Part shown: positions 12,504 through 15,017 of the stretch, one piece after another
Layout of the letters: each line of letters opens with the position of its first letter
How positions within the stretch are numbered: the stretch's first letter is position 1
From: Candidatus Aerophobetes bacterium Ae_b3b
Lineage (GTDB): Bacteria > Aerophobota > Aerophobia > Aerophobales > AE-B3A
Reading direction: 5' to 3'
DNA length: 15,017 nt
NCBI GenBank assembly: GCA_005223085.1
Contig: NJBP01000048.1
Span: 1-15,017, forward strand
Program-made: the position numbers and the translations under genes
Notes under the pieces: model-generated
What the model was told of the DNA's origin: nothing
Databases searched by the model: none
The model's input: only the letters and a program-made list of their open reading frames with translations

Positions 12504-13805
12504 CTACCTGCCTAAGAGGTCATTTATTCTGTCATGTGCCTCCGCGAGAGCTTCCTCAGGTGTCTGAACGCCTGTTAGGGCATTTTGCAACGCTGTTATC
12601 ACGATGTCTGCGGTCTCTGGCCACTCTTCGATCGCCGGAGGGAACTTAACTCGATCCTGATTCTCAACGAGTAATCGTCCAAACTTATCGGAAGTGATTG
12701 CCTCAGATTGTGTCACATCCCTGCGTGCTGAAGTCCATCCATTGACATACCACGTCTCTAACTGGTTCTCATAGTTGTTCACATACTTGACAAAGTCCCA
12801 TGCCTCCTGAGGATGCTTCGTCTGAGCGCTTATCACCTGTCCAACCAGAGTGGCTTGTGTGAACACGGGCTTTTCGCCATAAGACGGAAAAGGTGCAAAT
12901 TGCAGAACTTTGAATGCGTTTAGTTCAGGATTGATGCCATCGACTATCCCTGGTGTAAAGGCTGTTCCAACGTTCATGGCAACCTTTTCGTTGGCCAGTG
13001 CTATTCTAACATCATGGGGTCCCATTTCTACTGCACCTGGATGGGCAACTTTATGCTTTGTGGCAAGTTCTACGAAGAACTTGAAGCCTTCCAGTGCTTC
13101 TGGCGAATTCAGGGCAGAAGAGGAAAGGTCCTTGGTCAGATAATCTCCTCCTGCGCTCCAGACGAAACCACTAAATCTGGAGAACAGCCCTAGGGTGCGC
13201 GCAGCAGTCATACCGAATCCCCACTGGTCTACCTTACCATCATCATCTGTATCTCTGGTCAGCACCTTGGCATTCTCTAAGAACTCTTCCATAGTCTTCG
13301 GTGGATGGCACGGATCCAGGCCAGCTTCGCCAAACAACTTAGAGTTATAGACAAGCAGCCAGGGGTAAAAAGACCCCGGGATCATATATACGTTCCCGTC
13401 GACAGTGAGAGCAGATATTGCCGTCTCACTCCATGTCTCAATGAATTCTGGCTCTTCCTGCTCGATAAAAGTGTTCACGCTCATGATATAGCCCTTTTTC
13501 GCAAAGAGAGGGACAACGTCAAAACTGAAATCCCCTATATCTGGACCTACTCCCGCTTCACAGCGGGTTGTATAAACGGTTTCCTTATCAGCAAATGTGG
13601 TTGATTGAAGCTCAATTTTGATCCCGGGGTTTTGCTCTTCATACTTCGCCACAATGTCTCTGATCCAGCCTCCCCAGATTTCTTCAGCTAAGCCCCAGCT
13701 GAAGTAGGTAAGCGTGGTCTTCCCCTGCGCCGCTGATTCAAACACTGGGCCAACGGACAGCACCAAGCAGAGCACCAGTAAACTAGTCACCAAATTTCGT
13801 TTCAT
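12504..13805 (-). CDS. Extracellular solute-binding protein (family 1, sugar ABC importer)
   Basis: Periplasmic binding protein, 433 aa, complete. The signal peptide is residues 1-26 (MKRNLVTSLLVLCLVLSVG core, cleavage near SAA before QGK); Cys13 is inside the hydrophobic core, not a lipobox. The mature part starts TTLTYFSWGLAEEIWGGW, followed by NPGIKIELQST, GPDIGDFSFDVVPLF, the hinge-side VYMIPGSFYPWLLVYNSKLF, and the Asp-rich loop DTDDDGKVDQWGFG that many family members carry. The C-terminal helix is TPEEALAEAHDRINDLL. ATG 13805 has a strong Shine-Dalgarno (AGGAGGT, 13813-13819). First gene of the six-gene minus-strand operon; it would serve the permeases at 9456-10316 and 8582-9442. I see no convincing promoter between it and the IS110 element to its right. 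Confidence 0.95.
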   Translation of the reverse strand: MKRNLVTSLLVLCLVLSVGPVFESAAQGKTTLTYFSWGLAEEIWGGWIRDIVAKYEEQNPGIKIELQSTTFADKETVYTTRCEAGVGPDIGDFSFDVVPLFAKKGYIMSVNTFIEQEEPEFIETWSETAISALTVDGNVYMIPGSFYPWLLVYNSKLFGEAGLDPCHPPKTMEEFLENAKVLTRDTDDDGKVDQWGFGMTAARTLGLFSRFSGFVWSAGGDYLTKDLSSSALNSPEALEGFKFFVELATKHKVAHPGAVEMGPHDVRIALANEKVAMNVGTAFTPGIVDGINPELNAFKVLQFAPFPSYGEKPVFTQATLVGQVISAQTKHPQEAWDFVKYVNNYENQLETWYVNGWTSARRDVTQSEAITSDKFGRLLVENQDRVKFPPAIEEWPETADIVITALQNALTGVQTPEEALAEAHDRINDLLGR

Positions 13806-13864
13806 TTGTACTACCTCCTCATGTGTTATTTTAAACTCACCATATTATTGGTAGGTTTAATTGC

Positions 13865-13893
13865 TTGAATTTTAACTTACTCTCTGCTATACT
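13865..13893 (+). promoter_or_regulatory. Promoter of the IS110 leader RNA
   Basis: -35 TTGAAT (13865-13870), 17-bp spacer, -10 TATACT (13888-13893). The predicted start near 13900 falls directly before the first stem (13903), as expected for a promoter dedicated to a structured RNA. Confidence 0.65.
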
Positions 13894-13976
13894 TTTAGGC
13901 AGGGAGTAAGGACGACTTAAATCTCTTTTGCGGGCTCCGAGCAATCGGAGTACACGCTTTTCAAAGAGATGTCGCC

Positions 13977-14004
13977 TTGCTCCTTTTTTTGTTTAAAGGA
14001 GCAA
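13977..14004 (+). other. Linker hairpin competing with module A, with internal T-run
   Basis: TTGCTCCTTT (13977-13986) and AAAGGAGCAA (13995-14004) form a perfect 10-bp stem with loop TTTTGTTT. Its left arm overlaps the 3' arm of module A's basal stem (13975-13983), so the two folds exclude each other. Module A followed by seven T (13984-13990) also looks like an intrinsic terminator. Confidence 0.6.
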
Positions 14005-14017
14005 ATTAAGGTATAAT
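13989..14017 (+). promoter_or_regulatory. Second promoter-like sequence, between RNA modules A and B
   Basis: -35 TTGTTT (13989-13994), 17-bp spacer, perfect -10 TATAAT (14012-14017). Start would fall near 14024, right before module B's first stem (14026). The -35 is poor, so it could be chance in AT-rich sequence. Confidence 0.45.
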
Positions 14018-14125
14018 CTCTTCCTGAAGCAGGCAAGGCTCTTTACCTCCTTGCGGGCCCCTGCGGGGGTACACGCTATCGAAAGACTGCCCCCTGCTTC
14101 TGGGAGAGGCTTGTCAGATGAGGTT

Positions 14126-14168
14126 TATAGGATGCTGCGAAGCTCAATACTTTTGAGCTAACGCTATA
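14126..14168 (+). other. Third hairpin with GCG/CGC flanks before the transposase
   Basis: AGCTCAA (14141-14147), loop TACTT, TTGAGCT (14153-14159), flanked by TGCGA on the left and AACGCTATA on the right, with an outer TATAG/CTATA pairing (14126-14130, 14164-14168). It resembles a smaller, diverged version of modules A and B (GCG, hairpin, CGCTAT). May be part of the same RNA or a leader structure of the transposase mRNA. Confidence 0.5.
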
Positions 14169-14222
14169 CATGAGGTCCCCACTGGCAAGATTTATACAAA
14201 TTTATCCATGAAAGGAGAACGT

Positions 14223-15017
14223 ATGAGTCAAAAACTCAAAGAACAAAGACTTAAAGAACTTGCCTTCGTAGGAGTAGATACCCACAAAGACGAACATACT
14301 GCCTGCATAGCTAACTGCTTTGGCCAATCCTTAGGAGTATTTACTTCAGAAAATAGACCCAAAGAGCTAAAAGGACTTCTTGAGAAAGTAGATGAAACTG
14401 CTAAGTCTCATAACTTAAAGCCTGTCTTTGGCCTTGAAGATGTAATGGGTCTAGGTCAACACCTTGCCCGATCCTTAATTTCTGGTGGCTATCATCTCAA
14501 AGAAGTAAATCCAATAGAGACTGAAAGAAAACGTCTTAAGAACGCACATCCTGACAAATCTGATCCCTTAGATGCTCTGGCTATATCCAGGGTGTTAATC
14601 ACAGACTTTGATAAGCTACCTACTATCCAGAGCTTAAATGAGATTTATTTAGCAATCCATGAGCTCTCCAACCGGCGCGACTCTTTAGTTAAAGAAAAGA
14701 CCAGAATCAAGAATAAACTCCATATACTGCTGCATCGAGAATACCCCTATTACCAAACTATGTTTAAGAATACCTTCTCTAAAGCAGCCTTAGCCTTTTG
14801 GGAAAGGTTCCCTATAGCTTCTTTACTTAAGGGTATCGGAGTAGAGAGACTCGCTCAATACCTGAGGGCCAATTCCAATAACACTGTCTCTACTAAAAAG
14901 GCCTTAAGTATTTTGAAGCTGGTCGATAAAGATTCTGTACCTTCTTGTTTAAATCTAGTTCACTCAAGTATCATCAGGAATCTAGTAAAGCACTTGAGAT
15001 TTATTGAAGAACAGATA
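14223..15017 (+). CDS. IS110-family DEDD transposase, N-terminal part, runs off right edge
   Basis: Recombinase that moves the element, guided by RNA in characterised relatives. 265 codons are visible and open to the edge; full-length proteins are usually about 330-430 aa. The RuvC-like domain carries all four acidic residues: D19 (FVGVDTHKDEHTA), E72 (VFGLEDVMGLG), then D114 and D117 (DKSDPLDALAI). A helical, basic coiled-coil region follows (SNRRDSLVKEKTRIKNKLH). The C-terminal Tnp domain with the catalytic serine lies outside, so activity cannot be judged. Start at ATG 14223 is supported by AAAGGAG six bases upstream; an in-frame ATG at 14208 would put that site inside the gene. The long leader holds the candidate bridge RNA. 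Confidence 0.95.
   Translation, partial: MSQKLKEQRLKELAFVGVDTHKDEHTACIANCFGQSLGVFTSENRPKELKGLLEKVDETAKSHNLKPVFGLEDVMGLGQHLARSLISGGYHLKEVNPIETERKRLKNAHPDKSDPLDALAISRVLITDFDKLPTIQSLNEIYLAIHELSNRRDSLVKEKTRIKNKLHILLHREYPYYQTMFKNTFSKAALAFWERFPIASLLKGIGVERLAQYLRANSNNTVSTKKALSILKLVDKDSVPSCLNLVHSSIIRNLVKHLRFIEEQI

What the first reader, a model, noticed from the sequence alone, without database searches (positions are those of the whole stretch)
13900..14100. Two homologous stem/internal-loop modules upstream of an IS110 transposase: a candidate bridge RNA
Seen: modules at 13903-13983 and 14026-14100 share TTGCGGGC before and GTACACGCT after a variable apical hairpin, each closed by UCUUU/AAAGA-type pairing and a long basal stem, and the first is preceded by a TTGAAT-17-TATACT promoter whose start coincides with the first stem. 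Known: IS110 elements of the IS621 type encode a bridge RNA with target- and donor-binding loops next to the transposase. Inferred: one module reads the target and the other the RE-LE donor junction. Here both loops visibly share a scaffold, which should make the guide bases easy to locate.
Basis: partly seen in the sequence, partly recalled or inferred. Interest (0 to 1): 0.85.

Follow-up and report, generated by a model that had tools for sequence, protein, structure and literature searches.

The report
IS110 recombinase with three guide stem-loops
The stretch in front of an IS110 transposase encodes three RNA stem-loops of the kind that tell IS110 mobile elements where to insert; two are close duplicates and a third had been overlooked, so this is a new member of a known RNA-guided recombination system with one guide unit more than expected.

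Summary
Two stem-loop modules with an identical inner scaffold (TGCGGGC…GTACACGCT) lie upstream of an IS110 transposase. A covariance model built only from modules upstream of related IS110 recombinases (12 of 15 pairs with compensatory changes) picks the three window modules as its three best hits in the 2-kb end of the window. In those relatives the module is demonstrably a guide: its 5' loop matches the right flank of each insertion (112 matched bases against 63±6 in permutations, 0/50,000). So "candidate bridge RNA" is supported. The role assignment is not. Modules 1 and 2 are duplicates of one unit (−10 box plus loop, homologous over ~100 nt), while module 3 is the only one whose loop resembles the element's right end (ATAGGATG). 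Best reading: modules 2+3 are the bridge RNA (target loop, then donor loop). Module 1 is an extra target-type unit, either an older left end or a spare guide. Neither module 1 nor module 2 could be matched to the element's flanks, and the left end is inferred, not proven. Interest lies in the duplicated guide unit and in the relatives, whose guides are set to polymorphic-toxin/RHS linkers.

The parts
14223..15017 (+). IS110-family DEDD transposase/recombinase, 5' part (residues 1-265); completed by contig C83 (L002:1-583) to 416 aa
   Evidence: Pfam PF01548 and PF02371; IS621 and ISCro4 are the PDB relatives; C83 shares an exact 127-nt overlap with the window end
13888..14000 (+). unit 1: TATACT box plus module 1 stem-loop (target-loop type)
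   Evidence: fold; homologous to unit 2; covariance-model hit 13895-13994, E 0.27
13915..13928 (+). module 1, 5' internal-loop strand (ACTTAAATCTCTTT)
   Evidence: position relative to the TGCG scaffold, as in relatives
13929..13957 (+). module 1, inner stem and apical hairpin (TGCGGGC…GTACACGC)
13958..13971 (+). module 1, 3' internal-loop strand
13989..14017 (+). TTGTTT-17-TATAAT, promoter-like site in front of module 2; perfect -10 box
   Evidence: read from sequence; -35 box too weak for the scanner's threshold
14006..14007 (+). inferred left core dinucleotide TT (element would start at 14008)
   Evidence: homology with G004:C79 starts at 14004; virtual RE-LE junction gives TTGACA-16-TATAAT; inferred
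14018..14108 (+). module 2 stem-loop: inferred target-binding loop of the bridge RNA
   Evidence: fold; best covariance-model hit 14019-14112, E 0.061
14038..14051 (+). module 2, 5' internal-loop strand (GCTCTTTACCTCCT), inferred left target guide
   Evidence: target not found
14052..14076 (+). module 2, inner stem and apical hairpin
14077..14090 (+). module 2, 3' internal-loop strand, inferred right target guide
   Evidence: fold; covariance-model hit 14137-14176, E 0.12
14122..14135 (+). module 3, 5' internal-loop strand (GGTTTATAGGATGC); ATAGGATG equals the right end in C83, inferred left donor guide
14165..14178 (+). module 3, 3' internal-loop strand; reverse complement ends GTATA, as in the inferred left end
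13812..13890 (-). host leader/operator of the minus-strand sugar-binding-protein gene (12504-13805): not part of the element
   Evidence: same block at other genes in G002, G005 and G012 without the element

Best explanation
The region is the left end of an IS110-family element and encodes its guide RNA. Modules 2 (14018-14108) and 3 (14110-14189) together form a bridge RNA: module 2 is the target-binding loop and module 3 the donor-binding loop. The RNA would be transcribed from the TATAAT box at 14012, whose consensus -35 box (TTGACA) lies in the right end and is joined to it only in the excised circle. The recombinase would use the two strands of each internal loop to pair with opposite strands of the target and of the joined ends. 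Module 1 (13888-14000) is a second, paralogous copy of the left-end-plus-target-loop unit. It is most likely the left end of an older copy, or a duplicated spare target guide with its own promoter. Shown: the three modules, their homology to a covarying family, the guide function of that family in relatives, and the duplication. Inferred: which loop reads what in the window, the element boundaries, transcription and activity.
For: Transposase: PF01548 and PF02371, related to IS621/ISCro4. Modules. Model R1 from 26 relatives' modules, none from the window: 95.1% of cells paired against 72.1% in shuffles, covariation 0.662 against 0.209, 0/500, and far above slid registers. R1's three best hits in window 13000-15017 are modules 2, 3 and 1 (E 0.061, 0.12, 0.27; next E 5). 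Relatives carry one such module just upstream of the ORF, and its 5' loop matches the right flank copy by copy: 24 distinct guides, 112 against 63.2±6.2, 0/50,000; at least 5 contiguous bases in 25 of 43 loci against 7.7% of mismatched pairs. Unit 1 is homologous to unit 2 (0/1000), and neither to unit 3. Module 3's loop shares ATAGGATG with the right end, and its other strand shares GTATA with the inferred left end. A virtual RE-LE junction gives TTGACA-16-TATAAT. In G004:C79 a unit-2-like left end (49 nt, 88%) has host-like sequence, not unit 1, on its left.
Against: The model hits are individually weak (E 0.06-0.27 in 2 kb, filters off) and are not found with default filters. The ATAGGATG match has P 0.03 over all loops tried and sits 3-4 bases off the register expected with core TT; with core GT the register fits but the junction-promoter spacing does not. 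Module 2's loops match neither flank well, and no target site stood out in the genome. In relatives the module at the position of module 3 reads the target, and its 5' loop pairs with the transposase-sense strand, the opposite order to IS621; in the window that order was not supported. G002:C66 carries the left arm of module 1 joined to unrelated DNA, which is unexplained. C43 and C83 are joined only by an assembly overlap.
Confidence: 0.6

Rival explanations
1. One element with an enlarged left end (starting near 13884) that makes two target-binding RNAs plus one donor loop: module 1 as a separate ~100-nt RNA, modules 2-3 as the bridge RNA. The recombinase could then serve two targets.
For: Module 1 has its own promoter-like site, an intact fold (z -6.3) and a T7 run; loops of modules 1 and 2 differ while the scaffold is identical, as expected of two maintained guides. 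The junction of the right end with this left end would also give a 16-bp promoter spacing. Separate target-loop and donor-loop RNAs work in vitro for IS621 (PMC11208158).
Against: The nearest other left end (G004:C79) lacks unit 1. Relatives have one module. The T run sits in a bulge of the longest fold. No target was found for module 1.
Confidence: 0.25
2. One reading: module 1 is the target loop and module 2 the donor loop of one bridge RNA.
For: Two modules with a common scaffold directly upstream of an IS110 gene; target and donor loops of IS621 are structurally similar (PMC11208158).
Against: Modules 1 and 2 are duplicates including their -10 boxes; neither loop matches the right end, module 3's does; the model ignores module 3.
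Confidence: 0.08
3. Module 3 is the target loop, as its position and its AACGCT…TGAGGT scaffold suggest by comparison with relatives, and modules 1/2 are donor-type or accessory loops; strand order as in relatives.
For: Position 87 nt before the ORF and scaffold letters closest to relatives; in relatives that module reads the target. In two G004 copies the right flank begins CTCATCTA, close to the reverse complement of module 3's 3' loop (CTCATGTA).
Against: The right end then matches module 3's 5' loop only by chance; no flank of the window's own copy fits.
Confidence: 0.15
4. The stem-loops are only cis-regulatory (attenuation or translational control of the transposase), not guides.
For: They lie in the 5' region of the gene and module 1 ends near a T run.
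Against: The family fold covaries and its loops track the insertion flank in relatives.
Confidence: 0.05

Closest known systems
IS621-type bridge RNA (IS110 group; PMC11208160, PMC11208158)
   Same: DEDD RuvC plus Tnp-domain recombinase; RNA in the left end upstream of the gene; two internal-loop stem-loops in tandem; RE -35 and LE -10 that would form a junction promoter
   Different: An extra duplicated target-type module in front; the two target-type modules share an identical primary scaffold; core would be TT rather than CT; guide register for the donor not clean
seekRNA of IS1111 and IS110 types (PMC11187229)
   Same: 70-100-nt single stem-loop guide with matches to both target strands, like each module here and like the single module of the relatives
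   Different: Relatives found here have the RNA upstream of the gene (IS110-like) but the 5' loop pairs with the transposase-sense strand first (the order reported for IS1111)
TIGR-Tas stem-loop arrays (PMC12045711)
   Same: Tandem stem-loops each with two short guide segments
   Different: Here three units in front of a full IS110 recombinase, no Tas protein, no array

Membership tests
IS110 family recombinase | DEDD RuvC-like domain (PF01548) and Tnp domain (PF02371) | tested here: met
IS110-group bridge RNA element | long non-coding left end upstream of the gene encoding a structured RNA | tested here: met
   215 nt from the inferred left end to the ORF, about 45 nt after it; folds and covariance family
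IS110-group bridge RNA element | two internal loops, one matching target flanks, one matching the joined ends | tested here: inconclusive
   module 3 matches the right end by 8 nt (P 0.03 over all loops); module 2 not matched to its flanks
IS110-group bridge RNA element | same core dinucleotide (xT) at both ends | tested here: inconclusive
   TT fits both inferred ends and three of five right ends; CT in two copies; boundaries inferred
IS110-group bridge RNA element | junction promoter from RE and LE | tested here: inconclusive
   TTGACA-16-TATAAT in the virtual junction; circle not observed
guide-module family of the relatives | conserved fold with loops that track the insertion flank | tested here: met
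   for the relatives; the window modules are weak but top-ranked members, and flank tracking could not be shown for the window's own copy
IS1111 group | long non-coding region downstream of the gene and 7-17-bp subterminal inverted repeats | tested here: not met
   right end after the stop codon is about 45-50 nt; inverted repeats not tested separately
TIGR-Tas | Tas protein (Nop domain, solo or with HNH/RuvC) with a guide array | tested here: not met
   neighbouring ORF is a full IS110 recombinase; only three units
Rfam families | match at gathering score | tested here: not met
   no family matches the window

The most novel reading that the evidence does not exclude
A natural IS110 element that carries a small array of interchangeable guides: two target-binding RNAs with the same scaffold and different programmes, one of them an independent transcript, sharing one donor loop and one recombinase, so that a single element can insert at two kinds of site or re-programme itself by swapping units.
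Probability: 0.2. Interest if true: 0.8.

Novelty: new member of a known kind. Interest (0 to 1): 0.5.

Why it matters
Bridge RNAs programme both partners of a recombination reaction. A left end with two near-identical target-type units shows how guides may be duplicated and re-programmed in nature, and offers a ready-made scaffold for split guides. The relatives add a large natural data set in which guide and target co-vary at polymorphic-toxin genes.

Tried and rejected
(1) Left end at 13820 (CT-CATGTG): attractive because module 2's 5' loop and module 3's 3' loop both match there. Set aside because the same 24-76-nt block precedes several sugar-binding-protein genes in other genomes without the element; it is a host leader. 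(2) Left end at 13931, from G002:C66, which carries 13815-13931 at 99% without the rest: would cut module 1's 23-bp basal stem in two, so C66 is more likely a truncated copy. (3) Intact RHS target in the G067 genome matching both guides: only 2-mismatch hits, four against two in the control. (4) Target of module 2 in the own genome: 3 hits against 11 control hits. (5) First version of the guide-flank test, scoring the whole 330-nt flank, was too noisy (p 0.012); the test anchored on the core AG, chosen after seeing that noise, is the one reported. (6) Viral contigs: no relatives. Plasmids: only below 60% identity.

Full report
Observation. The two modules are in the sequence as described. The scaffold GCGGGC…TACACGC occurs exactly twice in 15 kb with none expected by chance, and both regions fold far better than shuffled sequence. 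The promoter-like TTGAAT-17-TATACT is present but not beyond chance by itself. No Rfam family matches.

A third module. Between module 2 and the gene lies a further stem-loop, 14110-14189, with the inner stem TGCG…AACGC. It lies 87 nt before the ORF, where related IS110 genes carry their single module.

The gene and its context. The ORF (14223 to the window end) continues in contig C83, which shares an exact 127-nt overlap with the window end, giving a 416-aa IS110 recombinase with PF01548 and PF02371; IS621 and ISCro4 are its relatives in the PDB. Close relatives exist only in genomes of the same small phylum: G004 at 86% and a fragment in G002. Everything else found is 34-55% identical, mostly Bacillota.

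A covarying family. I extracted 26 modules upstream of related transposases and aligned them. Twelve of 15 consensus pairs show compensatory changes; 95.1% of cells are paired against 72.1% in shuffles and 27-48% when slid, covariation score 0.662 against 0.209. A covariance model from these alone gives nothing in the whole window with default filters. With filters off on 13000-15017, its three best matches are exactly modules 2, 3 and 1 (E 0.061, 0.12, 0.27), the next at E 5. Membership of the window modules is therefore supported but weak one by one. Across 63 loci searched, nearly every intact relative has a single module just upstream of the gene; L031 and L033 have two.

The module is a guide in relatives. 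In these relatives the right flank lies at a polymorphic-toxin linker (PPEG[T/S/A]G) or the RHS core. The 5' loop of the module, reverse-complemented, matches that flank copy by copy: GTCGAACCC with GGGTTCG, CGCACC with GGTGCG, CGTACC with GGTACG, ACGTATC with GATACGT. Anchored on the core AG, 24 distinct guides match 112 bases contiguously against 63.2±6.2 under permutation (0 of 50,000), and 25 of 43 loci match at least 5 bases against 7.7% of mismatched pairs. The anchoring was chosen after a looser score gave p 0.012. The permutation does not correct for relatedness between loci; the copy-by-copy changes within Lacrimispora and within Paenibacillus are the part least affected by it. The 5' loop pairs with the transposase-sense strand, the order reported for IS1111 seekRNAs, although the RNA is upstream of the gene as in IS110 (PMC11187229). 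An intact target matching both halves was sought in one genome and not found.

Window: roles. Units 1 (13884-14002) and 2 (14003-14130) align over about 100 nt from their TATAxT boxes to the 3' basal arm (score 44, shuffle maximum 33, 0/1000); neither resembles unit 3. Modules 1 and 2 are thus copies of one type. Five right ends (C83; G004 C79, C99, C45; G002 C1) share GACATAGGATGTCT or a one-to-two-base variant. Module 3's 5' loop contains ATAGGATG (P 0.003 alone, 0.03 over all six loops), and its 3' loop, reverse-complemented, ends in GTATA like the inferred left end AAGGTATAAT. That is the pattern of a donor loop, with ATA and TAT flanking the core as reported for IS110 donors (PMC11208160), though the register is not clean. 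Module 2 would then be the target loop. Its flanks were not matched, and its best genomic sites are no better than the control.

Window: left end. The region 13812-13890 is host: the same block precedes sugar-binding-protein genes in G002, G005 and G012 without any element. G004:C79 carries a unit-2-like left end next to host-like sequence with no unit 1. Joining the right end to a left end at 14006 gives TTGACA-16-TATAAT with core TT; joining it to unit 1 (core CT) gives TTGACA-16-TATACT. Both are possible. I prefer 14006 because of C79, which makes module 1 the left end of an older copy, or a duplicate. G002:C66 carries the leader and the left arm of module 1 up to its apex and then unrelated DNA; I cannot explain why both fragments (C66, C79) stop at a module apex.

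What is known. Target and donor loops of IS621 adopt similar structures, two RNA molecules serve one complex, and separate target-loop and donor-loop RNAs support recombination in vitro (PMC11208158). A single 70-100-nt seekRNA can guide insertion (PMC11187229). So neither a shared scaffold nor a single-loop RNA is new. A duplicated target-type unit was not found in the papers read, but the library is partial.

Verdict. Real and of the kind proposed, with roles not as proposed and one module missed. It is a new member of the IS110 bridge-RNA kind; the two-guide reading remains open.

Noticed in passing
L016, L017, L022, L037-L058, L009, L011, L014, L031, L078: Related IS110 genes sit just upstream of variable C-terminal tips of polymorphic-toxin/RHS genes, with guides matching the conserved linker; a serine recombinase gene lies directly upstream of the module in L011, L016, L031, L034 and L078. 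Possibly an RNA-guided way of exchanging toxin tips.
   Followed up: partly
13812-13835 (minus strand); also G002 C66/C93/C115, G005 C83, G012 C65/C66/C77: A 24-nt leader TTTAAAATAACACATGAGGAGGTG recurs 20-150 nt upstream of sugar-binding-protein genes; at five loci it is joined to an inverted repeat AAACTCACCA…TGGTAGGTTT. Probably a shared operator or leader.
   Followed up: partly
L002 about 1243-1363 (G000:C83): A ~100-nt palindromic repeat present about 30 times in the genome and in many genomes of the phylum.
   Followed up: no
L002 681-720 and 1008-1026: Repeated TTGACAAANTGG motifs to the right of the element, like remnants of other IS ends.
   Followed up: no
L126 / G002:C66 (8262-8378) and L125 / G004:C79 (352-400): Fragments of units 1 and 2 that both break off exactly at the apex of the module, joined to unrelated DNA.
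   Followed up: partly
13979-14005: Inverted repeat TTGCTCCTTT…AAAGGAGCAA that competes with module 1's basal stem; could act as a conformational switch.
   Followed up: no
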